Shown here in pieces: positions 4,881-34,438 of a stretch of 64,000 bases of DNA. The position numbers and the translations under genes were made by a program. The notes below the pieces were generated by a model. The model saw only the letters and a list, made by a program, of their open reading frames with translations, made no database searches and was not told where the DNA came from. The number at the start of each line of letters is the position of its first letter. Position 1 is the first letter of the stretch. The DNA is taken from positions 3,286,001 to 3,350,000 of the forward strand of contig JAKSGN010000003.1 in the NCBI GenBank assembly GCA_024180945.1, in the 5' to 3' direction. The DNA comes from Macrophomina tecta (Eukaryota > Ascomycota > Dothideomycetes > Botryosphaeriales > Botryosphaeriaceae).

Positions 4881-7800
4881 ATGTTTTTGCGCAGCCTCGG
4901 GCTGGTGGCGGCCCTCTTGCTACCACCGGCCGCCGGCGGTATCTTGGGGCGTCGCCAGATTGTCCGCGTCCACGATCCCGACTGCGTGGTCGAGATCGAT
5001 GTTGGCGCCACTGTGTTTGAACAGCCGGTAGCTGTCAAGACCTCCATCACCCGCCCGACGACCATCACCGTGGGCCCAGGCGCCACAATCACGGTCGAAA
5101 GAGCCCCAACCTACCTCGATACGCTCGTTACGGTTACAACCACTTTGACAAATACCCGCACCCACACCTACACCATCAACACTTATGGGTCCGGCATAAC
5201 GTCGACTACCACTCGGGTCACCCAGCCCGGATATCCCTCTTCAACTGTATATTCTTCCGCCTCTGTAACTCTCACTAGCACATACTTTAGTGCATCCTAC
5301 AGTCTTCCTTCGCAAACGCCTAGCCTTGGCTACTCGTCTGGGTCTTCCGAGAGCGTGGTAAGTGCACATTCACTATGGCGGGAAAACCGCAAAAGAACGG
5401 CTTCAAGCGTAGAATATCAGTGGAAATTTGACCCCTCTCCCCGCATAACTCCTTATGGGCGGATGATTGAAGCTACGTGCTGTTCTTCTGCCCACCGTAG
5501 TCTCTTCCGCATCGGATTGTAGTGGAATGAGCGCTGACGGAAACTCAGTCTTCCGGTTATGGAGGCTCGTCCGCTAGTGTTTCCTCCGGAACCGAGCCCT
5601 CTGTATATCCCAGCTCGCAGCCTGAGTCTGGCAGTTCCTCCACTGCCAGCGGCTACGCCTCTGTTCCATATGAAAGCGTCAGCTACCAATCATCTTTCGG
5701 AACCTTCTCGGCAAGCGCTGAGTATGGCTCAAGCTCAGCGTTCTTTGGAAGCTCATCGCCCGGTGAATCTGGCTACCTGCCTCCGACGGGAGTTGTCACG
5801 TTGCCGTATTTGGGCCCCTCCCCGACCTCATTGACAGTCACTTCCGGCACAAATTCACGTCCTGTAGTCCTCACGCCAGCGACTGTTGCCACTTTCACAG
5901 GACCTACCGGTCGTGACACATTCACGGCCGGGTACGATGGTTCTACCACAACCAGCCTTGTGATATTGCCTACGGGTACTAATACCGAGGCCACCATCGT
6001 CTTGGAAACGCCGAACCGTAGCTTATCGCCCACCGACATCTTGACGTTGACGTATTTCGGTCCTTCACCCACCACAGTTGTGGCAACTGTTGGCTCCAGC
6101 ACCCGTACGCTGTACCTGGTTCCTGCCACGGATGCAAACACGTATATTGCCACTGCAACGGTTACAATCTCTGCTGGCTATGATCAGCCGACGCCTACCA
6201 CCCTCACTGTTAGACCCACTTCTGGCGTCGGAACTGTGATTGTTGAAACTCCAACGCAGACCTCGGGTCCATCGTACACCAGCTCCCTGGGCTACAGCTC
6301 ATCACTTGCGTTCAGCAGTATCACCAGTCGATCTGTTATTGGCCTGTCGGACCCTACTTCCATTTTCGTGGCAGGCGAGAGCGAGCAGCAATCTCTCAAC
6401 CTTGTTCCTGCCACTGTATCCAGCTATCCTGGTCCCTACGCAACCTTTGCTGTGACAGCTGGTTATCCCGGCGCTTCCCCCACGACCTTGCTCATTCTGC
6501 CTTCTGGGACTGAGCCAGCCACTCCGCTCATACTTACTCCCACCGGCTATGCTGCTACAAGCTCTGGGATTACCTCCCGTTCTGCGATCGGTTTACCGGA
6601 ACCCACCTCCATTTTGGTGACTAGCGGTAATCAGCAGCAATCTCTCAACCTTGTGCCTGCTACGGTTACGTACTATCCCGGTTCCGTCGGAACTGCTGCA
6701 GTTACGGCTGGGTATCCTGGCTACTCACCAACAACATTACTCATTCTGCCTTCTGGGACTGAGCCAGCGACGCCGCTCATACTTACTCCCACAGGTTATG
6801 CTGCTACAAGCTCTGGGATTACCTCTCGCTCTGTGATCGGTTTACCGGAGCCCACCTCTCTTTTAGTGATTAGCGGTAGTCAGCAGCAATCTCTCAACCT
6901 TGTGCCTGCTACGGTTACGTACTATTCCGGTCCCGTCGGAACTGCTGCGGTCACGGCTGGGTATCCTGGCTATTCACTGACAACATTGCTTATCTTGCCA
7001 ACCGGGACTGAGCCGGCAACTCCACTTGTACTTACACCTACCGGATACGCTACTACGAGCCTCGAAATCACATCCCGCTCTGTAATTGGTCTACCCGCAC
7101 CTACCTCGCTTCTAGTGACTGCAGGAAGTCTTCAGCAATCTCTTAATCTTCTCCCGGCGACGGCATCGAGTTTTACAGGTGCTATAGCGACATTTGCTGT
7201 GACAGGAGGATATCCCGGGCCAACACCTACTACACTTGTCATCCTTCCGATCGGCACTGAGCCGGCTACTCCTCTCGTTCTTACGCCAACAGGCTATGCA
7301 ACCACAAACACTGGAACGACTCGCTCCGTGATCGGGCTACCAGCCCCGACGTCATTTTTAGCGACGGCTGGCAGTCTACAACTGTCCCTCGATCTTGTTC
7401 CCGCTACAGCCGCCAGTTTCACCGGCCCTCTTGCAACGTTTGCTCTGACCGCTGGCTACCCAGGCCTCTCACCTACTACCCTCGTGATACTTCCATCTGG
7501 GACAGAACCAGGTACCCCTCTGGTCCTGATCCCCACTAGCTATGCTACCACCTCGGGTCTCTTTAGCTTTGCATCACCCGGTGGCGCCACTGTGACATAT
7601 CCGTACATTACAGGAACTATTGTGACTACCATCACACTGCCTGTAAATGGAGTCCCGTCTGCTTTTGTCTTGACGCCAACCCAGATATCTTTCACCGGCA
7701 GCTTGGCAACCAGCAGCTACACCATTGGTTACGACGGCCCGACGACGACGACGCTCACAATCCTCAACCCCGGCCCGTCGCAGGAGGGTATCGTTGTGGT

Positions 7801-10800
7801 GGAGACTCCAACTGGCTCGCAGCTCTCTTCCACTTCCCCCGGCTACGGAAGCTCTTACGCACCCTCGAGCTCTGCCATATCATATTCCGGCATGACATGG
7901 TCTGCCGCTCTCAGCACTTTGCCATATGTCGGCGGTGAAACCACCACAACTGTGACCGGAACAATCAGCGGTACGCTGACGACGTTTGTTATCACACCTG
8001 TCACCCCTCCTGCTACCACATATACCGGAGCGTTTGACCCTTATACCTCAATTGTTGCTGGCTACCCTGGAATTACGACCACCACATTGACCATTCTCCC
8101 TACGAACCCGACTGGATTAGCCACTCTTCTTGTGGAGACTCCAACCGACCTCAGCATGTCGTCCACAGGCTCCGCTTCGTCCGGCAGTGAGAATCTCTCG
8201 GCTTCAATAACAGCCCCACCCTCGTCCTCCACCGCGGTTTTGACGGATGTCGTGACCCAATACTATATCGGAGGAACGACAACAGCGACTCTCTATCCAC
8301 TCATCGGTAGAGCACCGAGGGCCCTGTATATTATACCCCTCCCTTATCCCTCTTTGACGACGTTCGGTGTTGTTCCAATAACCTTGACCGCAAACTACGC
8401 CGGAAGCGCGCCTCAGACAGTCACGCTTGCCCCTCTTACCCCCGGAGGGCTCGGGACCTTGTTGATAGAGCAGCCTTACTTGTCATCAGCAGGATTGACG
8501 ACTGGCGTGCTGACTCGCCCTTATGTTGGAGCAACCGGAACACAAGTGATCACTCCTGGTATCAGTGGAGTCCCAGGCAGCGCAGCAATTACTCTCACTC
8601 CCGCAACCACCGCTTTTGCTGGCCCCGTCAACCCTTCGATCACAATTACTGCTGGTTGGCCTTCGGATAGTGTTGGGACAGTGACATTGCTCCCAACTGA
8701 TTACGACACGACGGGGACAATTGCGATTTTGACTCCTATATACTCGCCTCCTGTCTCTGTAACAGCTTCGATTGGTGCAGGCCTTCCTTACATTGGAGGA
8801 ACTTCCACTCTCACCATCTCTCCTACAATCAGTGGTCTTCCAGTTGGCGCCGGGTTTACACTTTACCCTGTTTCCACCTATTTCACTGGTCCTGTTGGCC
8901 CAATTACGTGGACGATACCCGCAATCACTCCTCTGCAAAGTCCTCAGACCTATACGATTCTTCCGCAAGGTTCCGACTCTTACGGAACAGTTGTAATTGA
9001 GACTGCATTGGCTTCTAGTGCAACAAATGCTCCCAGTGCCACCAGCGTCGGCCCTGTTACCAAGCCTTACCTTGGCGGTACCTCACCGACCATTATTACG
9101 CCTATCATCAATGGTGTGCCATCCACATTGCTGCTGAGCCCCACGACGGGCTTCTTCAGTGGACCCTATGCTTCAGGTGCCCTCACTGTCGGTTATCCGG
9201 GTTATGGCACATCCACAATCACCATACTCCCTGCAGGAACAGATGTCCCTGGGACCTTGGTGGTGGAGGTTCCAACCGGCAGTGCCCCTGCAGAGAGTTC
9301 TCCATCGGCGATGACCACGGGTTTGAGGACTCAAGGCTACCTGGGCGGAAATACCCTGGAGACGATCACCCCCATCCTCAACGGATCGCCCATGCCAGTC
9401 TTCATTACGCCTACGCAAGCTACTTACAATGGTCCTTATGTTACATACACCCTTACGGTTGGCTACGGAGGTTCTACAACCAACACCATTACGCTGCTCC
9501 CAACTGGTTCGGAATCTGCAGGTACGGTAGTGGTGGAAACTCCAACCGCTTCTTTCGGCAGCTCGCCTGGTATCACGGCTACTGGCGCACCCACTGCAGT
9601 TGCCGGTTTCACTGTGCCATACTTGAGTGGATCTTCTACTGTTGAGGTGCCTGCCACCATCAGCGGAGTGCCAATTGTTCTCACCCTTACTCCAGCTACG
9701 CAGGATGCATTCACCGGTCCGATCGACCCAAGCACGACCTTCACTGTGGGCTACAGCGGTACCGTTACCACAACCCTTACTATCCTACCCACTGGGTCTT
9801 CTGGGACAGGTATTCTCGTGGTTGAGACGCCACTCAGTTCTCCCACCAGCTCTGCTTCACTTTCATTGCCTACTGGCGGCGTTGTTCCTTATGTCACTGG
9901 TACGGGTGTTCTCACGCTCTCAACAACTATTGCGGGCATTCCTGTTACATATACCTTGACGCCCGCGACTATTTCATCCTTCGGTGGTGCCATTGATCCC
10001 AGCACAACTTTCACGATCCCTGGATGGACGGGTGCACCTACCACCTTTACGATTCTGCCCACGGCTTCTGGCGTCTATGGAACCCAGGTCATCGCTTCTC
10101 CAGGTTCCCTACCCAGCACTTCATCTCCCATTGCGTCAGCATCAGAAAGCTTTACGACTGTCACCATTCCCTACGGTGGGTCCGTCATTTCCACATTCAC
10201 CGTATTGCCTTCGGGCACGAACATCGGGACCGTCATCGTTGAACTGCCGTCAGGTCTCCTACCGTCCTCATCCGGATCGGCTGCCTCCACAAGTCCTGGG
10301 CCTGGCGGCATTACGCGCCCGTACTACGGAGGCACAGCAGTCCAGACAATCGCTCCTTTAGTCACAGGTGTGGGCTTGCCCGCATTCGTGATCACTCCCA
10401 CGGATGCGCCGTACACGGGTTCCCTCGACCCCAGCATCACTCTTACTATTGGATATGACGGCTCCACCCCGACATCATTCACGCTATATCCTCTTGTCAC
10501 CGGTGGCCTCGCAACATTGTTGGTGGCCACTCCATCGAACGCTGGATTCCTTTCCTCATTCTCCTTGACTACGGCTTCTCATTCTCTGTTGCCGCTGCCT
10601 TCAGCTTCGGCAGGCCCCATAAGGTCATATATCGGCGATACCACGACTGGAGTGATCACGGCTACTGATGTCGGTGGTATTCCGTTTACTCTGTCGTTGA
10701 CGCCTGCGACAATCACTGCCTACACTGGTCTAGTGGATCCATCTACATACCTGGCTACTTGGACTGGGCCGATCTCAAGGACTATAACTGTACTTCCGCT

Positions 10801-13800
10801 GCCTTCGCAGGATCTTGCCACCGTGATTATCGAAGTTCCAGCTTCGGTTACATCTCCTGGCAGCTACTTCACTACGGTTGCGTCATCTTCTTATCTGCCA
10901 TCTGCTTCCGCCGTCATTGGTGGCCGTCCCTACTTGGGCGACGTATCAACTCAAACTGTGGCGGTGTCCGTTGGAAACGTCCCGATCACGACTCTAATCT
11001 TGACTCCTGCCACCGCGGCCTTGACGAACGCTGTCAATCCGAGCGTGACTTATACTGTCCCGTGGTCCGGTACCAGTACCAAGACTTTGACTGTGTTCCC
11101 CGGTCCCGGCGAGGATTACGCAACTTACGTTTTGCAAACTCCGGCACTCACCTCTGGCCCCGCGATTTCTGGACTTCCTTCAGGCAGACCTTATGCCGGT
11201 GACACAACCATTCTTAGCATTAGTGCTACGCTCGGTCTTACCGGGTTGCCCACTGATCTGCTCCTCGTACCAGCTACTGCCACTCCAACCTTCCCGATCG
11301 ACCCCTACAACACATTCGTCGCGCCTTACACTGGAGCCAGTGTGCGCACTTTGACGTTGTTCCCGACAGGAAGCGAGACCGCAGGAACGTACCTAGTGCA
11401 ATACCCTGCATCAGCGACTGGCTCGTCCTTGGCACAATCTACAAGTTCCATTAGCCTACCAACTGTTGGCCGCCCGTACTATGGTGATACTACAACGGGA
11501 ACAGTCACAGCTTCCACAAGCCTTGGTGCTATTCCCACTGGTATTTTCCTGACACCGACAGATGCACCATTCCCTGGCCTCCTGGATCCTGCTGTCACGT
11601 ATACTGCACCTTGGTCTGGTTCTTCTACTTTGTCTCTGACCCTGTATCCAACTTCAGGCGCTATCTATGGCACATTGTTGCTTGAGGTTCCCCAAATCAC
11701 GGGTTCGAGCTCTCTCGGTACCTCGATTGCCAGCGGTAGACCATACTACGGTGACAGCACGGCTGCCACGATCCCGGCCGCCTCGACCGGCCTTCTTGCC
11801 GTTCCAACCAGTCTGTACATCATACCAACCACATTTTTCACCGGCCCGATCGATCCCACAATTACCTTCACGGCTCCTTGGGATGGATACTCGACTAAGA
11901 CTTACACCCTCTATCCGACAGGTAGCGACATCTCAGGGACACTTTTGCTGGAGACTCCTGCGAACCTGGTATCGACGGGTCTGCCTACAAGTTTGGCCTC
12001 CATTACTGCAGCACCACCATTGGCGTCGGGCATTCCTCGCAGGCTCTATGCGGGTGACTCAACTACAGGCTTGATTACCGTGCAGCCCGATGGCACCGGT
12101 CTTCCAACCACGTACGACCTTGTTCCGTATACGGGTGCTTCCTCCTTCACTGGACCGTACGATCCGCTAGTGACCCTGACAGCGGCGTATGAAGGCACGA
12201 CAAGCAAGCTTATAACCTTCCTTCCTGAATCATCGGGTGGCTTTGGTACTCTCGTTCTTGAGGTCCCTCGGACTGCCCTTGCTGCTCCAACGTCGTCGCC
12301 CTTTGCATCCTCGCTTGGCGGTCCTCGCTCTTATGTCGGTGATACCACTTCTGGCATCATCACGGCTTCGGCTCCGGTCCTTACTGCTCCAACAGTCCTC
12401 ACACTCGCACCTGCCAGTGCAGCGTCTTCCTTTGCGATCGACCCGGTAACCACCTTGACCGCTGGCTACCCTATCGAAGCGCCCAATGACTATGCTGGTA
12501 CCCGTACCCTGACCTTGTTTCCTAGCGGAACACTCACCTACGGCACGATCCTGCTGGAAACCCCGATCTTGACCTCGTCGGGCTTGCCAACATCGGGTGT
12601 TTTCGGTGGAAGGCCGTACTGGGGTGATACTACTGCTGGCACAATCACTGCAACCGCTTCACTGCTCAACGCCCCGCTTGTCTTGACAATCACCCCGGCC
12701 ACTGCTACCACCTCCTTCGCCGTCGATCCCGTGACTACCTTGACAGTCGGTTATGCAGGTGAAACCGTAAAGGTCTTGACACTACTTCCGAGTGGCACTT
12801 TCAGCCTCGCGACGATTTTGCTGGAAACACCCACTGCAGACACTGCCCCTGGCCTGCCCACCTCCTCCGCTGGTCCTTTGAGTGGAAGACCATACATCGG
12901 TGACACGACTGAGGGTACTATCATTGCAACCGCTTCTCTCCTGAGTGCGCCGCTTGTTATCTCGATTACGCCGGCGACTGCGACACCTTCCTTCTTGGTA
13001 GACCCTGTAACAACACTCACTATTGACTACCCAGGCCCAACTACCCGTAGCATTACACTCTTGCCTAGTGGAACCCTTCCATACGGGACCGTTATAGTTG
13101 AGACGCCTTCCACTGCTCTCGGCGGAAGACCGTATATTGGAGACATAACTACCGGTACTATTACTGCAACTGCTCCTCTTCTAACTACACCGCTTGTTAT
13201 TTCGATTACACCGGCGACTGCGATACCTTCTTTCTTGGTAGACCTTCTAACCACCCTTACTATTGGCTATCCAGGCCCAACTACCCGCAGTATCACACTC
13301 TTGCCTAGTGGAACCCTCTCCTATGGGACCATTGTCGTTGAGACGCCGTCCTATATCTCTTCGTATAGTGGGTTAGTATCCACCACTGCCCCTGGCGCAA
13401 GGCCGTATATTGGAGATGTAACTGTGGATACTATTACTGCAACCGCCTCTCTTCTAAGCGCACCGCTTGTCTTGACTATCACGCCAGCAACTGCCACTCC
13501 CTCTTTTTCGGTGGATCCCTTAACAACCCTTACCGCTGGGTACTCGGGAGCAAGCACCCGTAGCGTCACACTATTGCCAAGTGGAACGCTAAGTTATGGA
13601 ACTATTGTCGTGGAGACGCCGTTTTCCACCTCTTCTTATAGTGGGCTGGCTTCCATCACTGCCCTTGGCGCAAGGCCGTACATTGGGGATACAACCGTTG
13701 ACACTATTACTGCAACCGCCTCTCTTCTAAGCGCGCCGCTTGTCTTGACTATCACGCCAGCAACTGCCGCTCCCTCGTTTTCGGTGGACCCCTTAATAAC

Positions 13801-16800
13801 TCTCACCGTTGAGTACGCAGGAGCCAGCGCGCGCAGCATCACCCTATTGCCAAGTGGTACGCTGAGTTACGGGACCATCGTTGTAGAGACGCCATCCTTG
13901 AGTTCTTCATATGGCCTGCCGACCGCCTCTACTGCGCTTGGTGGAAGGCCATACATCGGTGATACGATTGTGGACACCATTACTGCCACAGCTTCTTCTT
14001 TGAGCGCACCGCTAATCCTTACGATAATCCCTGCAACCACTACTCCATCCTCTTTTGCGGTTGATCCCTTAACCACTCTGACTGTTGGTTATCCGGGCGC
14101 GAGCCCTCGCAGCATAACGCTCCTGCCCAGTGGGACTCTCAGCTATGGCACCGTTGTTGTGGAAACGCCATTCAGCTCATCGTACGGCCTGCCCACGCCT
14201 TCCACTGCCTTTGGCGGTAGACCGTACATTGGCGACTCGACTGTGGGAACAGTCACTGCTACTGCTCTGCTTTTGAGTGTGCCCGTGGTTTTCACGATCA
14301 CTCCTGCCGCTGATTCGGTGCTCACCTACCCGGTGGATCCAGTGACAACACTGACTACTTACTACCAGGGCACAGCAGTCAGCACTCTTACTCTTCTGCC
14401 GACCGGTACTGAAAGCCTTGCCACGTATTTGATTGAGACACCGTCTGGGGTCTCGACAGCTTTCCCATCCGCATCTTCTGCAGGCCCCCTACTCTATGAC
14501 GGAGGTGACGGTACTGTTGCCACATTCACGGCAACGCCTGTTGTTGGTGGACAGACAGTTGGAATACCGACGGTCTTCACGCTCTACCCCGCTCCAACTC
14601 CATGGACTGGGTTGGTGAACTCAATTGGTGCCTTCACGACACAGTGGTCTGACAGCACAACACGTACGCTCACTATTCATCCGACCGGCACGGACAGTTA
14701 CGCCTCCTTACTGGTTGAGGTGCCCAGCGCCACACTCCCTGCCTCTGGCATCAGCTCTTCGGCTCCCCTTCCTTCTTCTTCGGCTCCGTTAGGTCAATTG
14801 TACGATGGCGGCGATCGCAATATCGCTACATTTACCGTAACTCCTCTTGTTGCGGGTCAGACGGCCGGCCTTCCTACGGTTTTGACGCTCTATCCTGCAA
14901 CATCCTCATGGTCGGGACTTGTGAACTCTGCAACCCCCTTCACAACACAATGGGACAGTTCTACGGCGCGGACCTTGACGCTTCACCCTACGGGCACGGA
15001 TGGTTACGCTTCGCTGCTCATTGAGATTCCCAGAGCTACGCCTACCTCGTCCGCATTCGCATCATCGTCACCATCTGGATTGCTGTACGACGGTGGAGAT
15101 GGTACCATTGCCACATTCACTGTAACTCCTGTTGCTGGTGGTCTGACCGCCACGGCGCCTTCTGTCTTGACCCTCACTCCTGCTCCATCATCCTGGACTG
15201 GCGCCGTCGACTCTGGGGCGGCACTGACCACTCCCTGGACGGGTGTGAGCTCCCGTACTCTCCTCATTCATCCGACTGGAACAGATACAGCGGCTACGCC
15301 TTTGATCGAAGTACCTGGCGCCACCACCGCCTCAGCCTCTTCACCTTCTTCTACTGCTCTCAGCCTACTATACGACGGTGGAGATAGCACAGTGGCCACA
15401 TTTACTGTGACACCATTACTTGGTGGCTTGACGGCTTCTATGCCCTTAGTGCTTACTCTGACCCCTGCTCCTTCGTCTTGGACTGGGGCTGTCAACTCCG
15501 CCGCGGTATTAACTACTCCTTGGACCGGTTTAACTTCGCGCACCCTATTGATCCATCCGACCGGCACTGACACAGCTGCCACGCCGCTTATTGAGGTACC
15601 AGGAGCTGCTACTACGTCCGCTCTTCAGTCCGTTGTTCCTGGGCTCCTTTATGATGGCGGCGATAGTATTATCGCAACCTTCACAGTAACGCCATTGCTA
15701 GGAGGACTGACTATTACTGGGCCTTCTGTGCTCACTCTCACTCCAGCCCCGTCACCTTGGAGTGGGGCGATTAATTCGGCTGTGGTACTGACTACGCCAT
15801 GGACTGGCCTGACTTCCCGTACTTTATTGATTCATCCTGCTGGCACCGATACCGCCGCTACGCCGCTTATCGAAGTCCCTGGTGCCACCACGGCTTCGGT
15901 TCCGCCATCAGTGACTCCGGCTGTGGGTGGAAGGCAATATCAAGGCGATACAACGACGGGAACTGTCATCGCCACTCCGGTCACCAGCTTCTCAGTACCC
16001 TCCGGCTCGCTCTTAACCACCCTTGTCGGCGCTCCCACCACCTTGTCGTTGATCCCCGCCACTTCGCAATTCAGTGGAGCAGTCAACCCAGTGCTGACTT
16101 TCACCGCACCCTACGACGGTCCCATAACCAGGACACTGACGCTACTTCCAGAAAACGGGGAGACAACCGGTACCATCCTCATCGAGGTTCCTTCAGCAGC
16201 CTCATCTGGCTTCCCATCATCGCTCCCTGTTGGCCAGCTTTATGACGGCGATTCCACCGTGGCAACGGTTACCGCGACACCGGGTAACAGCCTTGGCGTT
16301 ATCCCAACTGCTGCTCCGACCGCGCTGGTTCTTACACCAGCCACTGCTCCGTTCTCCGGGTATGTGGACCCAAGCATCATCTTGACCGCACCATGGACGG
16401 GAACCTACACTCGTACCTTGACGTTGCATCCCCAGGGCACTCAATCTGCTGGCACATTGCTGGTGGAGACGCCATACGCCGCCTTATCCAGCATTCTGTC
16501 CACAAATCCAGGAGTTTCCTCGTCCGTCCCAGCCTTATCCTCCGCCAGTGCTCAGCTCTATGACGGCGATACAACCACCGGCACCATCACCGCCACTCCG
16601 GGCAACACCCTCGGCCCCATAGCCGGCGCGTCACCGACTGCAATCCCCCTCACGCCCGCAGCAACCCCATGGCCTGGCGCCATCGACCCTGCGACCTCCT
16701 TCTTCCTTCCCTGGTCGGGAACAACCACCCGGACTCTCGTCCTGCACCCGTTGTCCTCTGACGGCGTGGGCACCTACGTCCTCGAGACGCCCTACGCACC

Positions 16801-19800: not shown

Positions 19801-22800
19801 TGCGAGCCTGACCGCAGGACCATCTGGGCCTGTGTCCGGCGCTCCTGGTATTTCGGCGTCTGTAGAGGTCTCCGCTAGTGGTCCTGGTGTATCTGCACCT
19901 ACTGCTTCGGCTCTCACTGGGCCTCTCGCACCCTCTGGCTTGTCTAACTTGCTCAGCGGCACATCATCTCCTGGCGTCCCTTCAGAATCGGGTCTGTCAG
20001 CCGGATCTGCTGTACCTCCAGGCAGCTCTGTCCTCCCCACTAGTAGTCTTTCGGCCAACCTCGGCCCTAGCGCTTCTGGATCCGGCCTGCCGTCTTCTGG
20101 AGCATCCGCGCCCAGCGGCTCTGAGACACTTTTGTCATCTGGACCTGGTGTTTCTGGCATTCCTTCTCAGCTGCCAAGTGGGTCGTCTTCTCTACCACTG
20201 GGTGGCACCGCTTCACAGCCGTTATCTCTCCCATCCGGTTCTGACATTAGTTCAGGACCTTCGACACCGGCTGTTAGCGGTCTGTCGGCATCTGGTTTGT
20301 CTGCGAGCAGGTTGGAGCCATATGGCTCTGCATCATCTCCTGCTGGTGTGACCAACTTGCCGACGGGAAGTGAGGCTTCTTCGAGTCCATCGCCGTCAAT
20401 TTCTGGGGCCTCATCGTCTGGATTTCCCGGCCTTTCCAGCAGCGACTATGCTCCGACGATAACGGTCACAAGTGGAACAGAGTCCCTTACCTCAACCACC
20501 GTTGTGACCCCCAGCGGCGCGACTCAAGGCATTACCCAGGTGATCATCAATGTACCTCTAAGCAACCTCGCTGGCCTGCCCTCGGGGTCCACTAGTCCTT
20601 CTGGCCCGAGTGGATCGTCGCTCGCTATTGTCAGCCCAAGTCTCTCTGCTCCCTCTGTTGGCAGCAACGGCATTGCTACTATCTCAATAACCTCGCGTAC
20701 ATCTTTTTTCACCACTACAATCCTCACGACGCCCGCCACCGCAACTGTTCCGATCACTGCGGTTGTCATCAACTACCCAGAGAGCAACGCGCAGGCATCG
20801 GGGCTTCCTTCAGGTTCCGTTCCCGAGGTATCTTCTATAGGCCCTGGCCTTCCAACTGGCATCCCCGGTTCCTCTTCGAGCGAACCGGCTCTTCAGACAA
20901 TTACTTCATACTACCCTGGCGCCAGTGCGTTCACGACTACACAGTTGAGCCCATCAACCGGAACTTCGCCTTACAGCCTAATAGTAGTTGTCAATCTACC
21001 CTTGAGCAACCTGGCCAGCGGCAGTCTTTCCACGTACACTACGACGTCTGGCTCAGTTCCACTGACTTCGACTCGCATACAATCCATCGGCTCAATCCCG
21101 TACACTGACGTCATTGTCGTTGTCCCTGAGAGCGGCCTACCTGAAATTACTGCCTCCCTGCCATTCGGCGGCTCATCGACTCCTGGCGCAGGGCTGCCCA
21201 CAGTAACCCAGACATTTGGAACGGCAAGCTTCACATCTACTCGTACTCAGATTATTGGCGGCGCTCCTTACACTGATGTTGTTGTCAATGAGCCTTTGAC
21301 GGGAGTTCCGTTGAGCTCCTCTCCTGCTGCGGAAAGCCTCCCTACCGTTACTCAGCTTTATTTCACTGGGACGGCCACCTTCACCACTACCGGTCTTGCT
21401 TTCTTAAGCGGCTCAGCTGGTACTCTACCTGCGTCTGCTGTGATCGTCAATATCCCGGGAACATCAAGCCCTGCCATCCAGTCACCATCGCTGCCGATCG
21501 GCGGTACGTCAACTCCGGAAAGCCTATCCAGCATCACCGCCGGCCCATCAATTCCGTATGGTATCGGCATCCCGCGCACTCTTTACTACGTTGGGGATAC
21601 TACTACAGGCACAATTACGGCACAGCCTGATGAGACTGGTCTTCCAACAACGTTTGTCTTGGTCCCGTACACTGCTCCGACCACAGCCGCAGTCGATCAG
21701 TTTACCACTCTCACTGGCCCTTACGATGGCGAGACTACAAAACCGATCACCTTGCTGCCGTCTACCCCAGGTGGCGTTGGAACTATCCTCATTCAGACTC
21801 CACGCTTTGCCCTTGCGACACCCACCTCGCCGGGCCTCTCGCTATCTTCTCCGTTCAGCTCTGGCATGTCGCTGCCCACTGGTGGATCTTCGGCGCCAGA
21901 AAGCCTTTTGACCATCACTCAAACTTACTTCACTGGTTACTCGACGTTCACGATCACGGGATTGGTGACTGGCTCTACTGAAACTGCTCCGGTCTCAGCT
22001 GTTATTATCAACGTGCCCGGTAATGCTAGTCCCTCGCCATCTGGAATCATCAACCCAAGTCTCTCATCGCCACTGGGCGCCTTCTCAAGCCCAGAAAGTC
22101 TGACGACTTTGACTTCCACTTATTTCACTGGTGTTTCAACCTTCACTACGACCGGATTCGTCACCGTCTCCACTGGTACCGGGGCGATTCCCGCGGTTAT
22201 CATCAATGTCCCTGGCACTTCCGTTCCCAGCCTCTCTTTACCGGCGGCGAGCCTTCCAACCATCACACAGACATACACTGGGGATGTGCCGCAAACGACG
22301 ACAATTCTCACCTACCTAAGCGGTTCCACCGGCCTTACGCCTGTTTCTGCCATTCTGGTGCAGATTCCGCAAACTAATCTCGCATCGCCTGCTCAGTCAT
22401 CTCCTGGCTTATCTGGGTCACTGCCGCTGAGCCCAAGCGCATCTCTGTCGCTTCTGTCTGCGCCTGGAGCAAGCATTCCCACGATTACCCAGACCTCTGG
22501 ATCGGTGCCGTACACCTCTACTATCCTGACTTTCTTTAGTGGCTCTACTGGCTCCGATCCTGCTACTGCGGTGCTGGTGAATATTCCTTCGTTAGGGTCC
22601 GCTCTGAGCTTGCCTACTATTACTCAGACCTCTGGATTGGTGCCGTACACCTCTACTATCCTGACTTTCTTCAGTGGCTCTACTGGCTCCGATCCTGCTA
22701 CTGCGGTTCTGATAAACGTTCCGGCTTCTGGACCCGCTACCAGCCTACCTACTATTACCCAGACGTCTGGACTGGTGCCGTTTACTTCGACAGTTTTGAC

Positions 22801-25800
22801 CTACTTTAGTGGTTCTACTGGCTCTGATCTTGCTACTGCGGTTCTGATAAACGTTCCGGCTCCTGGACCCGCTACTAGTCTACCTACTATTACCCAGACG
22901 TCTGGATTGGTGCCGTTTACTTCCACGATTCTGACCTATTTTAGTGGTTCTACTGGCTCTGATCCTGCTACTGCGGTTCTAGTAAATATTCCAGCATCTG
23001 GGCCCGCTCCGAGCTTGCCTACTATTACTCAGACTACTGGATTGGTTCCGTACACATCCACGGTCTTAACATACCTGAGTGGATCGATTGGCACAGCCCC
23101 TGTGAGCGTAGTACTGGTTAATATTCCAGGCTCTTCGCCTACTGCAAGCCTGTCTGCTGCGAACCTCCCTACCATTACTCAGACCTCAGGCTCGGTGCCA
23201 TATACTTCAACTATTCTCACGTACATGAGTGGATCGATTGGCACGGACCCTATTCGTGCAGTGCTGGTTAATATTCCAGGCACTTCGCCTACTGCAAGCC
23301 TGTCTGCTGCGAGCCTACCTACTATTACTCAGGCTGCTGGGTTGGTGCCGTACACGTCAACGATCTTAACTTACTTAAGTGGATCGATTGGCACGGACCC
23401 CGTCAGCGCAGTACTAGTCAATGTTCCAAGCTCTTCGCCTACTGCAAGCCTGCCTTCTGCGAGCCTACCTACTATTACTCAGACTGCTGGTTTGGTTCCA
23501 TATACATCCACGATCCTTACGTACTTGAGCGGCTCGATCGGCACGGACCCCGTCAGCGCAGTACTAGTTAATGTTCCAAGCTCTTCACCTGCTGCGAGCC
23601 TCCCTACTATTACTCAGACTGCTGGTTCGGTGCCGTACACTTCAACTATCCTCACGTACTTGAGCGGCTCGATCGGCGCAAGTCCCGTCAGCGCAGTTCT
23701 GGTGAATGTGCCTCAAAGTGCAACCCCTAGCACTGTCTTGCCTTCGACTGGAAGCCCTGGCAACTCAGGCACGTCGAATATTCTGCCCAGCGGCCTTCTG
23801 ACCAATCTGGCGCCTGGACAGTCAACTCCGGCCAGCCTTAGCACCGTAACGTACACTTCTGGCAGCGTGCCTTTCACCACTACGGCTCTGATCACGCGCA
23901 CCGATGTCCTCGGTGGCTCAGCGTACAACGAGGTTCAAGTCTATGTCCCGACAAGCATAGCCACCCTTACAACAACTGTGACCTCTGGCGCTGTCAGCTC
24001 AATCTACACGACGATCGCATTGGTCGGCAGTGCCTTCGTTCCGGAAGTTGTCTATGTTGTCCCCACGCCTACCACCATCACAACCACCATTTATGGGCCC
24101 TCAAGTGCAACTTACACAACTGTCGCGTCATTCGGTTCGTCGGTTGTTCCAGAGGTGGTCATTGTGATCCCAAGCTCTCTTCCCACGATTACCATCACGC
24201 AAGGCTCAACAAGTGCTACGTACACCACACTCGCCACCACTGGCCCGTCTCCTTTCGTTGAAGTCGTTGTTGTGGTTCCCACCCCATTCATCCTCACTTC
24301 GACTCAAACCAGCGGTTACCTCCCCGCATACACGACAATCTTCGCCACACAGGATCCGACTATCAACAATGGCCTGCCTTACACGGAGGTACTTGTTGTC
24401 TTGCCTTCGCCGTTCGCTCTCACTTCGACCCTGACTTCAGGGAACCTTCCTGCGTACACGACATCCTTCACTACGCAAAATCCGACCATCAATAGTGGTC
24501 TACCATACAGCGAGGTACTCGTCATTGTGCCTACGCCATTGATTATATCTTCGACAATAACCTCTGGAAACCTACCGGCGTACACAACGGCATTTGCGAC
24601 GCAAAACCCGACTATTAACAATGGCCTACCATATAGCGAGGAACTCGTCGTTGTGCCTACACCATTAGTTGTGTCTTTAACAGTGACATCCGGAAATCTT
24701 CCCCCGTACACAACGGCTTTCGCAACGCAAAATCCAACAATTAATAATGGCATCCCGTACAGCGAAATCCTTGTCGTCCTACCTACGCCATTAGTTGTTA
24801 GCTCAACTATAACGTCTGGGAACCTGCCTGCCTACACAACATCTTTCGCGACCCAAAATCCAACTATTAATAATGGCCTCCCGTACAGCGAAGTCCTGGT
24901 CGTCGTGCCCACGCCTTTTGCTCTAACATCAACTGTCACGTCAGGAAATTTCCCCGGGTCTTATTATACCACATTTGTGACTCAAAACCCGAGCATCAAC
25001 TTTGGTGTGCCATACACTCAGGTCCTTCAAATTGACCCTGTGCCTTTTATATCGACAGCTACGATTACTAGTGGACTCTTACCTGTCTATACTACGGCTT
25101 TCGTTACGTCAAATCCGGCTATCAATAATGGCTTACCATACACGCAAGTCCTGGAAGTTAACCCGGTTCCATTTGCATCAACGGCTACTACTACTAGCGG
25201 GTTTCTACCTGTCTACACAACCACGTTCGTTACGTCCAATCCGACTGTTAATAATGGGCTGCCATATACGCAAGTCTTGGAAGTTGACCCAGTTCCGTTT
25301 GTGTCGACGGCTACGATTACTAGCGGATTTCTACCTATCTACACAACGACGTTCGTTACATTGAACCCAACTATTAACGGTGGCCTGCCGTACACGCAAG
25401 TCCTGGAAGTTAACCCGGTTCCGTTTGTGTCCACGGCTACTACTACTAGCGGATTCTTACCTGTCTATACGACTACGTTCGTTACGTCAAACCCGACTGT
25501 CAATAGTGGCCTACTGTATACGCAAGTTCTTGAAGTTAACCCAGTTCCGTTTGTATCATCAGCAACCATCACAAGTGGGACGTTGCAGCCGTTTACCACA
25601 ACCTTCCTGACGCAAAATCCAAGTATTAATAACGGATTGCCATACACTCAGGCTTTAGAGATCGACCCGGTGCCACTTATCTCGTCGGCGACCATTACAA
25701 GCGGGTCATTGCCGCCGTTTACCACAACATTCCTAACACAAAGCCCAAGCATCAACAACGGATTGCCATACACTCAGGTGTTGGAGATCGACCCCGTGCC

Positions 25801-28800
25801 ATTTGTCTCGTCGGCGACCATCACGTCCGGGTTTTTGCCTGTCTACACAACCGTAATCGTCACTTCAGACCCAGCCGTTAATTACGGCCAACCTTTCACC
25901 GAGATTATCGTCGTCTCGCCGACTCAATATACCGCGACTTCAACTCTGACAAGCGGTGCATCAAGCTTCGTCACTACCGTGGCGACTGCGGATCCATTTT
26001 CGTTAATCAACGGTGGCCAACCCTACTCGCAAGTCATCTACGTTGTTCCGACTCCTACGCCGACGCCTTTCGGCCCCCTGACGACGACTATCACAAGCGG
26101 GTCAGTCTCCAGCACGAACACTCTGGTGACGTCTGATCCCTTAATCAACAATGGTCAACCGTTTACTGAGGTTGTGATTTACATTCCTACGAGCGGCCCT
26201 ATCCTGTCTTCAAACCCGAACAGCAACCTCGCTAATGGACCAAGCGGACAATCATCATCACCTGGCTATCTGTTCACATCTACCCAATACTCAGGCAGTC
26301 TTCCTTTCACCACAACATTCCCGGTTACTTGGACAGATGGCAGCCCAGCTACGGAGGTTCTGGTCAACTATCCTACGTCCACCAGCGCGACCACGAGCGT
26401 ATGCTTGCCCGCCGCCGGATCAGGAGCCCCTCAATGTCTTTCTGCGCTTCCCAGCGCCTGTCAATCCTCGTCTGGTAGTGGCTTATTCGGTAGTTTTGTC
26501 AGCTCTATCGATTACACGGCTTGCCGAGCGGCCTTGGGCGTCTTTGGTACAGTTCAAGCCGGAGCATGTTTTGTTGAGAACACATTCGGCGGAGTCATCA
26601 GTGTTTTGAGTCCTTTCAGCAATGAGGGTGACTTTTTGTCTTGCTTGCACAACTACGTCCCCACCTGCGACAATTGCGCTCCTGCACTGCCGTCTGCTTG
26701 CTCGGCTCTTTCGTCTCTGAGCAGCCTCATTGGCAACGGTGATGTGCTTTTGTGTCAATCCGCTCTAGGAATTTACGGTACGACCACTGCACAGACCTGC
26801 TTCAACAACCTCCTAGATGGCGCCAGCTTGCTATCCTGCTTGAACGCGAACGTCCCCTTCTGCGTCACAGGCAACCCCACGCCTACAGCCATAGTCGCTG
26901 CCACTACGACTACTCTTTGCGGCACCCCCGTGGCGACTTCCTGTGTGACCAGTCTACCCTCTGCCTGCAACTTCCCCGACACCGGCGGTCTTTTGTCCAG
27001 CATTGTCGACCCTGCTTCTGTTAGTGCTTGTAAAATCGCACTGGGTGCCTTCGGTACCGTCCAGGGCGCCGCCTGCTTCGCAGATAGCATAATCAGCTCT
27101 TTCACCAATTCTGACATCCTCTCCTGCCTTCGCGCCAATATCCAGACCTGCGACAACTGCCTCAACGCCAATATTCCCTCATCTTGCCAGCAGTTGAGCA
27201 CCGTCGGCACCTTGGGCCTCTTAGATCCTCTTGTCACCACTTGCCAAACCGCTCTTGGTCTGTTTGCGCAAGTACACGCGGCAAGCTGCTTCGTCGCCAA
27301 CGGCGCGAATTCCATCGTCGGCTCTGACTTGCTAAGTTGTGTTACTAATAACGTGCCGACTTGTGCGGGTACGACAACCAGTGCACTTAGCACTTCCTAC
27401 ACGACTGTTGGCCCCACTCCGTTCGTGTCCACGATCGTGAGCAGTCCTTTATTCGGCTCTGCAACATCTTACATCCTCGTAGGATCTCCTGCGCCGCTTT
27501 CCACCGTGACAATCAGGTCGGGCGCGATCAGTAGGACCACCACGGCCGCTACGTACGACTTCTTCGGCAATCCATCCTCTGTGGTAGAGGTCATCGTACC
27601 TGGCCCCGTTTTGCCTACGAGCTATACCACCGGTAACTTCCAACCTTTTACTAGCACTGTGGTGTCTCCTCCTGGTTTTTTCAACCCTGGTACGACCTAC
27701 GCGCTGGTCGGAGTTTCAGCGGCGGGGCCTGTGCTCTCAACCAGCCATACTACCGGAGGCTCTGTGGTAAGAAATCCGCTACAATTCACCGAATAAAAAC
27801 GCTGATATTCACAATATAGGCTTACACGAGTACTATCACGACAACACTCCCTGCCCTTTTTCCTTTTGGCCCTTCCACTCCAACTACGTACGTGGTAGTC
27901 AACACCCCTCAGATATTGGCACCACTGGGTGGCAACACGGCTCTTGCTCCTCTTGTTCATCCGACAGTGACGGTTCCTGGACCAGCCTCTACATTCACCG
28001 CCTACACTGACCCGCCCGGGACTTACACACCAGGAACCTATGTAATCGTTCAGGTGCCCCTTCAAACAGTTACGGTGGCCGGTCCAGCCTCGAGCGCCTA
28101 CACATCCTATTTTCAACCGCCAGGAACGTACACGCTCGGCAGTTATTACGTGGTCCAGACCCCATACCCAACGATTACACAGACGAGTGGCGCTGTTGCG
28201 TACACATCAACATTGCTGACGACACCCGCTGGAGCCCCTGGAGGGTGAGTATACCTCATGGTCCCAACTTGATTCCCAAAAGCTCACCATGACTTGCTAC
28301 AACAGGACGTACGTGGTCGTCAACCAGCCGGCGAGGCCTACATTTACTGTCACGTCTGGAAATGTCCTATTTACATCTACAGTTGCAACAGCAGTCTATG
28401 TGTACCAACCAACCCCTGCCCTCACGATTACTCGCACCTCTGGGAGCGTTACCATTAGCTCTGTTTCGACAACAATGGTCGGGGGTTCTGCGAGCAACGT
28501 GGAAGTGATCACCGTTCCAACGCAGGCGCCGTTCAAGATCTCTATCACTGATTTCCCTGGGAACTTCTACGGTTATTTGCATATGCTAGACACCCCATCA
28601 AGTGGAACAGCGCATCAGTGCGGCCTCACGCAAAGCTACACCAGCGGTTCCACCTTCCACATTGATCCGGCATCATCCCGGCTCGTCTGCACCTCCGGCG
28701 TGGGGTCGACACAGCAGCTTCACTCTTGTCAACGTAGTACAGACTCGAACGCTCCCTTCCTGTTCGATCACCCCAATCTCGCCGGCAACGTTGATATTCA

Positions 28801-29699
28801 CACGACTTTCTGGAATGACAACACGCTGCGCGTCGCAAATGCCGGAAATGGCCAGTACTTGGCTGCATTGTGTAGCGGCATCCTCTATCTCGCCGGAGGC
28901 ACCCCCAGTGGTTGCACGCAGGTTGTATTGTCGCCTTGCCGCTCAGCGCTCACGTTTGCAAGCACGACGGTAACCAGTGGAACGGGCGTCGCTCACACCG
29001 TCACTCATGCTGCTGCCGGAACAGCAATCAGCCAGGGTGGAGCAATTCAAGTAGTCGTTCCGTCTTCCTGCTCGGCTGTTCCTGGAATCGAGTACACGAA
29101 CCGCCCGAACCCCGTTCCTGGCGGCGCGACCGTCTCGGACCCCTACTACGCTGCGTTCCATCCGGCCGTCTACAACAACCCTCAGACGGCGCCATACAGT
29201 ACAATCAACTTCCGGGGCGTCGCAGACAACATTGCCTTGGGTATCGCCAGCCCTGGAAATGGTGTTGTGTACAACTCCGGTACACATTCAATGTCGCAAA
29301 CAGCCTTGATTTTCCGTGGATACTTTTACGCACCAACAAGTGGTTTATGGACTTTCACGCTGCATCAGCCGGATGATATCGGGTAAGTCCAAGTTTTCCC
29401 ATGCTATTAATAATAATGCTAACATCCGTCGTTCCAGGTATCTATGGATTGGGCCAAACGCGGTGTCTGCTTGGTCAGACACCAATTTTAACGTCATCGC
29501 CGGCCTCAACACGCCAACAGCAAGCACAACTATGACGTTGACAGCTGGCTCCTTGACACCGATCAGACTCGTCTACGGCGATGGTAACGGCGCCATCAGC
29601 TTCACTTTAAGGACGACCGACCCCAGCGGTCAAGTTAGAGAGGACACCACCGGTCTCTTCAGGCAGACAATTTGTGGACCGTACACTGGATGGACATGA
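4881..29699 (+). CDS. Giant secreted GLEYA-domain adhesin-like repeat protein (8152 aa)
   Basis: Five exons join in phase: 4881-5357, 5549-27766, 27820-28244, 28306-29382 and 29438-29699, predicting 8152 residues. Introns of 191, 53, 61 and 55 bp have GTAAGT, GTAAGA, GTGAGT and GTAAGT donors. The protein starts with a signal peptide (hydrophobic residues about 5-20) and a dibasic RRQ site. It continues with beta-type repeats (242-4010), a Ser/Ala/Leu helical block and linker (4010-5130), two more repeat families (5130-7040), four Cys-rich modules (7109-7433), a small domain (7783-7930) and a C-terminal GLEYA/PA14-like domain (about 7960-8140). GLEYA domains of yeast adhesins bind glycans; surface adhesion is therefore the likely role. 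No C-terminal GPI signal is present. Ser, Thr, Pro and Gly dominate, and I saw no Cys between residue 35 and about 7109. Alternative start: a perfect intron-like 4850-4894 would remove this ATG and join an upstream frame in phase. Confidence 0.85.
12600..14460 (+). repeat. Recently homogenised sub-block of array A (PYIGDTT units)
   Basis: Seven consecutive units, starting near 12610, 12889, 13127, 13403, 13673, 13946 and 14218, are far more alike than the rest of the array. They share runs of identical bases such as those coding for ITATASLLSAPLVLTITPAT and LLPSGTLSYGT. Spacing is about 240-280 bp. Such similarity at silent positions indicates young tandem duplication or gene conversion. Confidence 0.8.
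14480..15930 (+). repeat. Sub-block of array A with YDGGD signature
   Basis: Five units begin with YDGGD (near 14496, 14801, 15085, 15370 and 15647) and share the strands TLTPAPSSW, LLIHPTGTD and LIEVPGAT. They lack the preceding GRPY opening of the neighbouring sub-block. Later units at 16239, 16557 and 16846 carry shortened or mixed versions (YDGDST, YDGDTT, PYDGGDG), so the subfamily grades into the array's end. Confidence 0.75.
17580..19060 (+). repeat. Array B: eight Ser/Ala/Leu-rich, probably helical repeats
   Basis: Eight units of about 55-70 residues share a core reading SLAASLASQLSNLPSGDSSL followed by AGALSSGLSDLASLL-like sequence (residues about 4170-4663). Leu and Ala recur at 3-4 residue spacing, which suggests amphipathic helix, unlike the beta-rich arrays on either side. 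A related block at 19410-19820 has three copies of an SSLLSSVVSALPLTNSAEL-type unit. G+C is visibly higher here than in the neighbouring arrays. Confidence 0.8.
21540..21840 (+). repeat. Displaced array-A unit nested inside the C repeats
   Basis: This single unit is unlike its neighbours and closely resembles the array-A unit at about 12010-12310, almost 10 kb upstream. Both run GIPR-x-LY, then GD-TTG-x-IT, QPD-x-TGLPTT and LVPYT, and both end in a PRxALA(T/A)PTS segment followed by an SSPF stretch. It is best explained as a copy moved by unequal recombination or conversion within the gene. Confidence 0.75.
22470..23720 (+). repeat. Array C1: nine near-identical TITQTSG repeats
   Basis: Nine units of 42-51 residues follow the pattern LPTITQTSG, VPYTSTILTY, SGSIGTDPVSAVL, VNVP. 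Neighbouring units match over long stretches at the base level, including silent sites. Examples are the units at about 22610, 22735 and 22860, and those at 23300-23600. Expect length variation between strains and assembly collapse in short-read genomes. Confidence 0.85.
24290..26190 (+). repeat. Array C2: about fifteen 42-residue repeats
   Basis: About fifteen units have the form PFVSTATITSGFLPVYTT followed by TFVTSNPTINNGLPYTQVLEV-like sequence, mostly exactly 42 residues long. Two subfamilies are visible: an early one with GNLPAYTT and TQNPTINNGLPYSEV, and a later one with GFLPVYTT and TSNPT. The last two or three units are diverged. Residues about 6407-7040. Confidence 0.85.
26395..27370 (+). 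other. Four Cys-rich modules within the giant protein
   Basis: After some 7000 Cys-free residues the protein carries four modules of 65-90 residues with the order LPSAC, C-x-x-ALG-(I/V/A)-(F/Y)-GTVQ, A-(A/S/G)-CF, LLSCL-x-x-N(V/I)-x-TC. Modules 1 and 3 are followed by DNC. The even, repeated spacing suggests disulfide-bonded helical modules between the repeat stalk and the C-terminal domains. I do not recognise a named family. Confidence 0.7.
29080..29696 (+). other. C-terminal GLEYA/PA14-like domain of the giant protein
   Basis: The segment opens with GIEYTN (compare the GLEYA signature) and contains the FRGYFYAPTSG, WTFTLHQPDD and YLWIG strands typical of the PA14/GLEYA beta-sandwich. The adjacent Asp pair lies where these lectin-like domains hold calcium. 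An intron falls right after the Asp pair. In the yeast adhesins I know, this domain is N-terminal and a GPI signal is C-terminal; here it is at the extreme C-terminus. Confidence 0.8.
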
Positions 29700-32700: not shown

Positions 32701-32941
32701 GAAAAGAAAAAAGCATCCGCCACCATAGATTCGCTAATGTTCTGCTCGTGCTTTCGAATATGAAGTCATTTAAGGCTTTGCGCTGTTTAACTCGCTCTTC
32801 GCGTTACTGGTTAAACATTCAAGGCTGACACTGCCAGACAGAGGCTCCGGACCACAGTTCTGAGCCAACGCAAGCAACATATTTGTCGCAAGCAGTGTGA
32901 CTCTTGCGCTGCTGCTTCGAGCCGCGTCCACACTGAAGACT

Positions 32942-34438
32942 CCCAGGGGAATTCCAATATACGACTGGACCTTCATGGACCGCATTTTTTGATACCTACC
33001 TGTCCGCTAACGTAAAATCATATGTGCAAATTGGCTTCACGCCTCTGGCCTTATCAGCAGGTCCAGATCCCTACTTCTTCACGTTCACGCCAACCTCGCC
33101 CTATGATGCCATCTACACCGGATGGTCCAGCCCGCCCACCAACTACCAAACGTGGGAGGAATTGCTGTATCAATGGACAAAGCACAACGTGGAGAAGTAC
33201 GGGCAAGCCGAAGTGGAGTCGTGGTTCTGGGAAGTCTGGAACGAGCCCAACATCGCCTACTGGAACGGCACGCGCGACGAGTTCTACGCACTGCACGACC
33301 ACGCCATCGCCGCCGTCCGCCGCGCCCTCCCAACCGCACGAGTCGGAGGCTGCGAAGCAGCCGGCGGAGCGGCGGACGGCTACCTCGCAGGGCTCCTGAG
33401 CCACAGCCTGCACGGTGGCAACTACGCCACCGGCGAGACAGGCACGCCGCTCGACTTCGTCTCCTTCCACGCCAAAGGCGCGCTGCACTTCATCAACGCC
33501 ACGGGCGCGAAGGAGGGTGGCTTCGTCCAGATGAATCTCTCCGCGCAGCTGCAGCAGATCGATGGGGCGTTCAGCGTCGGGGCGTCCTTCGCGGAGCTGC
33601 GCCAGACGCCCATCGTGATGGGCGAGTACGATCCCGACGGGTGCGCGGCGTGCCAGACGCCGCAGTACGGGTACGGGAACGGCCTGCTGTATCCGTCCTA
33701 TACGATTGCGACGTTTGTTCGCCCCTTGGATCTGGCGGACAGATGGGGCGTCAATCGGCAAGGGGCGCTGACCTGGGCGTTTGAGTACGAGGAGGCGGAG
33801 CTGTTTAATGATACGACATACTCTGATGGCTTCCGTGTGCTCGCGACGCAGGGTATTGACAAGCCGGTGCTCAATGCCCATCGAATGTTGGGGATGATGA
33901 CAGGAGACAGGGTCCGGGCTGAGAGTGACGGTCAGGTGTCATTGGATGAAGCGTTGGCTGGGAGCGTCAGAGGCAAGACCGATGTGGGTGTGCTAGCTAA
34001 TCCCGACGAGGAGCGGGGTACGTTCTGGTCTGGCATTACCATGACAATGACACCAGCTTCCAGGATGCGCAGGTAGATTTGACGATCGGAGGGCTGGAGA
34101 ATAGAACATCTGCTAACCTGACGCATTTGCGTCTCGACGAGGAACACAGCAACTCTTATTCACTGTGGCGGGCTTTAAGCTCCCCAACAGCCCCCATACC
34201 GGTGGATTATGAGCGTCTGGTAGCTGCAGGTAAACTTGATGAACTAGAGACGCCAGGGAATGTCAGCGTTGATGAGGATGGAAAGTATATCATGCCATTT
34301 GCCTTGCCAATACGATCTCTCTCATTAGTTGTGGTGGAGCATGTTGAAGCAGGCAACAAGATTTCCTACTATCGTCCAACATTGGATCACAGTGAATGGC
34401 AAAAGACCATCCCCACTTTCCAATCCAATTTTCATTAA
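32942..34438 (+). pseudogene. GH39 (beta-xylosidase-type) glycoside hydrolase, broken
   Basis: The main open frame (about 32985-34076) reads as a fungal GH39 enzyme. It has the EVWNEPN motif with the acid/base Glu, and a GEYDPDGCAAC motif where the family has its nucleophile Glu. Two single-base frame changes break it. A T6 run at 32985-32990 separates YDWTFMDRIF from DTYLSANV. A second break near 34018, beside a G4 run, separates LANPDEERG from YVLVWHYHDND; the C-terminal part continues open to TAA at 34438. The N-terminal 100 or so residues expected of the family are not found upstream, and no signal peptide is seen. Catalytic residues survive, so decay is probably recent. Sequencing error could explain the frame shifts, but not the missing N-terminus. 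The 275-residue minus-strand frame here is a shadow. Confidence 0.75.

What the first reader, a model, noticed from the sequence alone, without database searches (positions are those of the whole stretch)
4881..29699. An 8152-residue GLEYA-domain protein encoded largely by one 22.2-kb exon
The sequence shows exon 2 open for 22,218 bases with flanking introns that keep phase, an N-terminal signal peptide and a C-terminal GLEYA-like domain. GLEYA/PA14 adhesins I know of are far smaller. A secreted stalk of this length, if extended, would reach well beyond the cell wall. No frameshift was found across 24 kb of repeats, so the gene is probably under selection.
Basis: partly seen in the sequence, partly recalled or inferred. 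Interest (0 to 1): 0.9.

Follow-up and report, generated by a model that had tools for sequence, protein, structure and literature searches.

The report
Giant fungal surface adhesin gene
A soil fungus, apparently of the crop-infecting genus Macrophomina, carries what looks like a real gene for an 8,152-residue secreted protein, a very long string of mostly old repeats ending in a sugar-binding-type domain, so it is probably an oversized version of known fungal adhesins.

Summary
Five exons (4881-29699) give 8152 residues, 7406 of them from one 22,218-base exon with no stop in frame, against 195-631 stops in the other five frames. The spliced C-terminus scores 97 bits against GLEYA, PF10528, across the last intron. 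The repeats are protein under constraint: fewer nonsynonymous than synonymous differences per site in 949 of 949 repeat pairs. Most pairs are strongly diverged at synonymous sites, a minority are younger, so the length is mostly old. A second near-giant in the genome, now in two halves at copies of one hAT-like transposon, shares the N-terminal domain (52% identical), Cys modules and GLEYA, which supports the single-gene reading. Another GLEYA protein of this genome is 98% identical to one of Macrophomina phaseolina. The plan (signal-like start, repeat stalk, C-terminal lectin-type domain, no GPI-like tail) is that of described GLEYA adhesins without GPI anchors. New are the scale, stalk units without a confident structural match, and Cys modules without Pfam or PDB match. 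Expression, ligand, anchoring and reach are untested. New variant of a known kind.

The parts
4881..5357 (+). Exon 1: signal-like start, dibasic site at residues 24-25, and an N-terminal domain shared with the second giant (159 aa)
   Evidence: ATG and splice sites; 80 of 153 aligned positions identical to the N-terminus of the C31 frame, E 2e-40; dibasic sites at 24 and 2323 only
5358..5548 (+). Intron 1, 191 nt, GT..AG
   Evidence: exon-1 frame closes at 5520 if unspliced
5549..27766 (+). Exon 2, 22,218 nt, 7406 codons
   Evidence: 0 stops in frame, 195-631 in the other five frames
5804..17083 (+). Array of long repeats, residues 245-4004: 41 of the 42 HMM stretches, with linkers between them
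   Evidence: HMM segmentation; AlphaFold2 of two units, mean pLDDT 85.5
17099..20431 (+). Ser/Ala/Leu-rich region (residues about 4010-5120) with 8 repeats of about 46 aa
   Evidence: composition, HMM, substitution counts
20456..26251 (+). Shorter repeats of about 33-45 aa (residues about 5129-7060), with one stray long repeat at residues 5506-5577
   Evidence: TRF periods 126-150 nt
26402..27364 (+). Cys-rich region, read by eye as four modules in two pairs (residues 7111-7431)
   Evidence: two halves 45% identical; no Pfam match, no PDB match; recurs on C13, E 1.1e-37 and 2.5e-25
27767..27819 (+). Intron 2, 53 nt
27820..28244 (+). Exon 3: further repeat-like sequence, no Pfam match
28245..28305 (+). 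Intron 3, 61 nt
28306..29382 (+). Exon 4: repeats, a domain of about 136 aa before GLEYA, and the first part of GLEYA
28532..28939 (+). Domain before GLEYA, no Pfam family
   Evidence: 42% identical to a domain of the small C31 GLEYA protein, E 1.2e-26; best Pfam match E 0.18, under its cut-off
29303..29621 (+). GLEYA domain, interrupted by intron 4 (29383-29437)
   Evidence: matches in two exon parts; spliced 97 bits
29438..29699 (+). Exon 5: rest of GLEYA, last Cys, stop codon; no hydrophobic C-terminal tail

Best explanation
It is one gene for a secreted, probably heavily O-glycosylated fungal surface adhesin of 811 kDa before glycosylation. Shown by sequence: a hydrophobic N-terminus, one giant exon, 41 long repeats in a row, a Ser/Ala/Leu-rich stretch, shorter repeats, a Cys-rich region, a further domain and a C-terminal GLEYA domain; no GPI-type hydrophobic tail; repeats under purifying selection. 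Inferred: the conserved N-terminal part is held in the cell wall without a GPI anchor, the repeats form a flexible beads-on-a-string stalk, and the C-terminal Cys, pre-GLEYA and GLEYA block is shown at the outer end, where GLEYA binds glycans with calcium, for contact with plant, soil or other hyphal surfaces.
For: Gene model and open frame. GLEYA at 97 bits on the spliced sequence and sequence matches to Epa1 (best 1.2e-4) and CEA1 (0.0019) lectin-domain structures, 9 of the 10 matches listed at E up to 1. The Asp-Asp pair that binds calcium in Flo/Epa lectins (PMC6308950, passages) is present in 4 of 4 GLEYA domains that I aligned of the 5 found in this genome. Purifying selection: pN<pS in 780/780 long, 120/120 45-aa, 21/21 42-aa and 28/28 Ser-type pairs; five picked pairs p 4e-7 to 1e-11. 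Two stalk units modelled as beta domains with a disordered linker. The modules travel together elsewhere in the genome: N-terminal domain plus long repeats in one frame on C31, repeats plus Cys modules plus GLEYA in one frame on C13. 2550 Ser+Thr, 9 Lys.
Against: No expression, protein or binding data. The second calcium ligand, Asn in the CBL2 loop of Flo/Epa, is Asp in this domain by my reading of the alignment, and phmmer leaves a two-residue gap there. The GLEYA pentapeptide is degenerate (GIEYT against G(M/L)(E/A/N/Q)YA). PA14 is matched only under its cut-off (20.1 against 24 bits). Nothing tested shows wall anchoring or which end is outward. A published M. phaseolina secretome paper has 0 occurrences of GLEYA, PA14 and adhesion in its main text and 'adhesin' only in its reference list; its supplements were not searched.
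Confidence: 0.72

Rival explanations
1. Several shorter genes lie in the region: one or more repeat proteins and a short GLEYA gene from the last exons.
For: The exon-2 frame ends at 27796 if intron 2 is retained; automatic annotation often splits such genes (general knowledge), and no protein of this size came up among 682 scored candidates.
Against: Only 10 Met codons lie in exon 2, and the most hydrophobic 10-residue stretch after any of them has a KD mean of 1.47, against 2.56 at residue 1; the C13 frame joins repeats, Cys modules and GLEYA with no intron, and the C31 frame joins the N-terminal domain to the repeats in one exon.
Confidence: 0.12
2. A secreted matrix or glue protein (mucin-like, shed into the medium or the extracellular sheath) and not a cell-anchored adhesin; GLEYA would crosslink it to glycans. 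This overlaps with the best explanation in all but the anchoring.
For: No GPI-type tail, very high Ser+Thr, no known wall-binding domain among the Pfam matches; GLEYA and WSC families are discussed as possible parts of the extracellular adhesive of nematode-trapping fungi (PMC3828140, passage).
Against: Fission yeast adhesins without GPI signal are held in the wall (PMC6023273, passage on Map4); the conserved N-terminal domain suggests a dedicated role such as anchoring (inference).
Confidence: 0.3
3. An assembly or annotation artefact: the repeats are inflated or the open frame is fortuitous.
For: Repeats are the usual place for assembly error (general knowledge).
Against: Array copies are only 74-85% matched, mostly diverged at synonymous sites but conserved as protein; no stop in 7406 codons.
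Confidence: 0.03

Closest known systems
GLEYA adhesins without GPI anchor, described from fission yeasts (Linder and Gustafsson; the paper itself was not read, seen only as cited in passages of PMC6308950, PMC8621652 and PMC6023273)
   Same: N-terminal secretion signal, Ser/Thr-rich repeats, C-terminal lectin-type domain, no GPI signal
   Different: 8152 residues; long repeat units predicted as beta domains, Cys-rich modules and a pre-GLEYA domain that match no Pfam family; no DIPSY family among the Pfam matches
Epa/Flo lectin adhesins of yeasts (PA14/GLEYA type)
   Same: GLEYA lectin domain by sequence, Asp-Asp calcium motif, Ser/Thr-rich middle part
   Different: There the lectin is N-terminal and, for Epa1, a GPI anchor is essential (PMC6308950, passage); here it is C-terminal with no GPI-like tail
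ALS adhesins of Candida (PF05792 repeats)
   Same: Part of the long repeat resembles the ALS tandem repeat, weakly; the C13 frame has 9 such stretches
   Different: Scores under the Pfam cut-off (17.8 against 25 bits here; 20.2 for the C13 frame); no other ALS domain among the matches
Second near-giant of the same genome (N-half on C31, C-half on C13)
   Same: N-terminal domain 52% identical, long and shorter repeats, Cys modules, GLEYA
   Different: No Ser/Ala/Leu-rich region noted by eye; Cys and GLEYA part in one frame without intron; interrupted by a transposon

Membership tests
GLEYA domain PF10528 | Profile match above the curated cut-off over the full model | tested here: met
   97 bits against 26.2, positions 2-91 of 91, spliced
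GLEYA domain PF10528 | Eponymous motif G(M/L)(E/A/N/Q)YA (PMC6308950 passage) | tested here: inconclusive
   GIEYT in this protein; GLAYA, GLLYA and GLSYQ in the other three domains aligned
GLEYA/PA14 lectins | Calcium site: Asp-Asp pair plus Asn in CBL2 (PMC6308950 passage) | tested here: inconclusive
   Asp-Asp present in 4 of 4 domains aligned; the Asn position reads Asp here and Asn, Asn, Asp in the others by eye; gap in the Epa1 alignment
GLEYA adhesins without GPI anchor | N-terminal signal, internal repeats, C-terminal lectin-type domain, no GPI signal | tested here: met
   Hydropathy of both ends, repeats, GLEYA at the C-terminus; by hydropathy only, no dedicated signal or GPI predictor run
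GLEYA adhesins without GPI anchor | Cell-surface location and adhesion | not testable with these tools
   No experiments
Flo-type adhesins | N-terminal PA14/GLEYA plus flocculin repeats (PF00624 or PF13928), as defined in PMC8621652 (passage) | tested here: not met
   GLEYA is C-terminal; no flocculin family in the Pfam scans
Candida ALS family | ALS repeats above cut-off | tested here: not met
   17.8 bits against 25

The most novel reading that the evidence does not exclude
The fungus has had two proteins of about 7000-8000 residues, each essentially one exon, as tethers of up to micrometre scale whose length is itself selected: most repeat pairs are near synonymous saturation yet conserved as protein, so the units have old, separate histories and have not been kept alike by recombination, as yeast flocculin repeats are thought to be (recalled). 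The lectin end would reach far beyond the wall while a new type of N-terminal domain holds the other end without a GPI anchor.
Probability: 0.35. Interest if true: 0.72.

Novelty: new variant of a known kind. Interest (0 to 1): 0.52.

Why it matters
Adhesion molecules outside Candida and Saccharomyces are sparsely described (PMC6023273, abstract and passages). A giant one with a mostly old stalk, in a genus of broad-host crop pathogens, offers a test of how adhesins without a GPI anchor are held and of whether stalk length is selected. It also hints that such genes can be missing from protein collections: a close relative of the small GLEYA protein is held, the giant was not found.

Tried and rejected
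Giants elsewhere: protein searches with the end of exon 2, Cys region included (682 candidates scored), and with the Cys-plus-GLEYA part of the C13 frame (7991 candidates scored) gave 0 matches at E 0.001; a search with the small C31 GLEYA protein gave 3 among 7995 scored, so the collection holds some fungi, Macrophomina included, but apparently few. Each search sees only candidates of 0.55 to 1.75 times the query's length, so shorter annotated pieces of the giant would have been missed.

Papers: GLEYA/adhesin/fungal (28 papers), giant protein/fungi/adhesin, largest protein/filamentous fungi/tandem repeats/cell wall, megasatellite adhesins, GLEYA/Fusarium, DIPSY or Linder (15 of 58,297 listed), giant/adhesin/Pezizomycotina/repeats/GPI, Macrophomina genome, Macrophomina/rearrangement/hAT (8 of 4,946 listed), Macrophomina/adhesin (8 of 27 listed). 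By title and start of abstract I saw none on this protein. I saw passages of 10 papers and read none whole. PMC9548116 and PMC4859500 gave nothing that I use.

Rows dropped before the substitution counts: 2 of 42 long-repeat stretches (a half unit at residues 1681-1726 and the stray unit at 5506-5577). The 45-aa set has 16 pattern-picked units (38 HMM stretches), the 42-aa set 7 (26 HMM stretches), of which the last spans two repeats. Against a wholly old array: pairs with pS under 0.60 number 11 of 780, 22 of 120, 6 of 21 and 0 of 28, the lowest pS shown being 0.21. The five pairs were picked by me from the most similar pairs of the four sets, with rounded counts.
Full report
WHAT IS THERE. 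The window lies at G000:C3:3286001-3350000 of a 54.1-Mb genome in 37 contigs. Exon 2 is open for 7406 codons while the other five frames hold 195-631 stops. There is an in-frame stop just before the ATG, and unspliced exon 1 runs into a stop at 5520, so intron 1 is needed.

ORGANISM. A GLEYA protein on contig C31 of the same genome is 98% identical over 98% of the query to a Macrophomina phaseolina protein. Macrophomina is in Botryosphaeriaceae, Dothideomycetes. The species of this genome is inferred from this one match: M. phaseolina or a close sister. Other frames of the window match fungal families such as Fungal_trans_2.

ANATOMY. Signal-like N-terminus and a domain shared with the second giant; long repeats at residues 245-4004 and one more at 5506-5577 (42 stretches in all); a Ser/Ala/Leu-rich stretch with 8 repeats; shorter repeats to about residue 7060; a Cys-rich region whose two halves are 45% identical and which I read by eye as four modules; more repeat-like sequence; a domain of about 136 residues; GLEYA. 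The C-terminal 40 residues have no hydrophobic stretch (best 15-residue mean -0.01), so a GPI signal is unlikely; no GPI predictor was run. In the Pfam scans only GLEYA is above its cut-off; PA14 (20.1 against 24 bits) and ALS (17.8 against 25) are under theirs.

SELECTION AND AGE. Between repeat units the nonsynonymous difference per site is below the synonymous one in 780 of 780 long pairs, 120 of 120 45-aa, 21 of 21 42-aa and 28 of 28 Ser-type pairs. Pairs are not independent, and aligning divergent units by protein favours this direction, but five similar pairs that I picked are individually significant, Fisher p 8.6e-9, 4.4e-7, 4.2e-7, 7.6e-8 and 1.2e-11. Several listed pairs that are 74-87% identical as protein have a synonymous difference of 0.7 or more per site, near saturation. 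A minority are younger: pS is under 0.60 in 11 of 780, 22 of 120, 6 of 21 and 0 of 28 pairs. So the array is mostly old, with some later local duplication, and is not kept uniform. The M. phaseolina genome paper did not observe repeat-induced point mutation in transposable elements (PMC3477038, passage), which fits the survival of so much repeated coding DNA.

STRUCTURE. AlphaFold2 on two neighbouring long repeats, with 39 repeat pairs as alignment, gives two beta domains joined by a linker of low confidence (mean pLDDT 85.5; residues 76-87 under 50), which suggests beads on a string. No solved structure matches with confidence. The pTM of 0.49 fits domains without a fixed mutual orientation. 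The contour length is my estimate only: 8152 residues at 0.36 nm would be 2.9 micrometres as an upper bound; with folded units it would be several times shorter, still likely longer than a fungal wall is thick (general knowledge).

RELATIVES IN THE GENOME. GLEYA is found at four loci: C31 (two domains), C13, the window, and a weak one on C5 with a stop inside the match. The Cys-rich region recurs on C13, the pre-GLEYA domain on C31, the long repeats in a 4880-codon frame on the minus strand of C31. That frame starts with the same N-terminal domain, 80 of 153 aligned positions identical. It is cut after about 4850 residues by a 2.7-kb element with hAT-like transposase sequence (recognised by eye and recall, not by a search). 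A copy of the same element, 99.85% identical, stands before the 2279-residue C13 frame with repeats, Cys modules and GLEYA. The 8-base target duplications match crosswise between the two places (read by eye). So the two are most likely halves of one former near-giant gene, separated by an exchange between two transposon copies or by an assembly switch. A search for the element listed 40 matches, 39 of them over the whole query, each printed as 100% identical (40 scored of 115 candidates; the C31 copy was not among them), so the number is a lower bound.

HOW IT MOST LIKELY WORKS. Shown: hydrophobic N-terminus, stalk, C-terminal GLEYA, constraint. Inferred: the N-terminal domain holds the protein in the wall, the stalk carries O-glycans, and the GLEYA end binds glycans with calcium. 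In its favour, Asp-Asp is kept in 4 of 4 domains aligned and Epa1 and CEA1 lectin-domain structures match by sequence. Against certainty, the third ligand position reads Asp and the loop is two residues shorter than in Epa1 by that alignment. [quoted passage not shown] The GLEYA family is among those highly expressed in two nematode-trapping fungi (PMC3828140, passage), and one of nine GLEYA proteins of Drechmeria is up-regulated during conidiogenesis and infection (PMC4792172, passage).

VERDICT. The finding is real and the reading mostly right. It is an extreme new variant of a known adhesin class. Interest lies in the size, in the age of the repeats and in the second near-giant; function is inferred.

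Noticed in passing
L010, L011 and L014 (G000:C13:161105-170667) and G000:C31, about 1142700-1159986, minus strand (L023-L025): A second near-giant of the same kind is in two halves, each ending at a near-identical 2.7-kb hAT-like element; the 8-base target duplications match crosswise between the contigs, so either two transposon copies recombined or the assembly switched there.
   Followed up: partly
G000, whole genome: A search for the hAT-like element listed 40 matches printed as 100% identical (a lower bound), which suggests very recent activity.
   Followed up: partly
L012:5167-7173 (G000:C31:1165167-1167173): A small double-GLEYA gene lies about 5 kb from the start of the C31 half and points away from it; it is 98% identical to an M. 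phaseolina protein of 1070 residues whose annotated C-terminus differs, running into other sequence where this frame stops.
   Followed up: partly
window 40578-42362, minus strand: A 595-aa open frame with a signal-like start inside it (by eye) and a sub-threshold CBM_4_9 match (PF02018) lies about 11 kb downstream of the giant gene.
   Followed up: no
window 32937-34073: A frame matching glycosyl hydrolase family 39 (PF01229) is the first frame of 300 codons or more after the giant gene.
   Followed up: no
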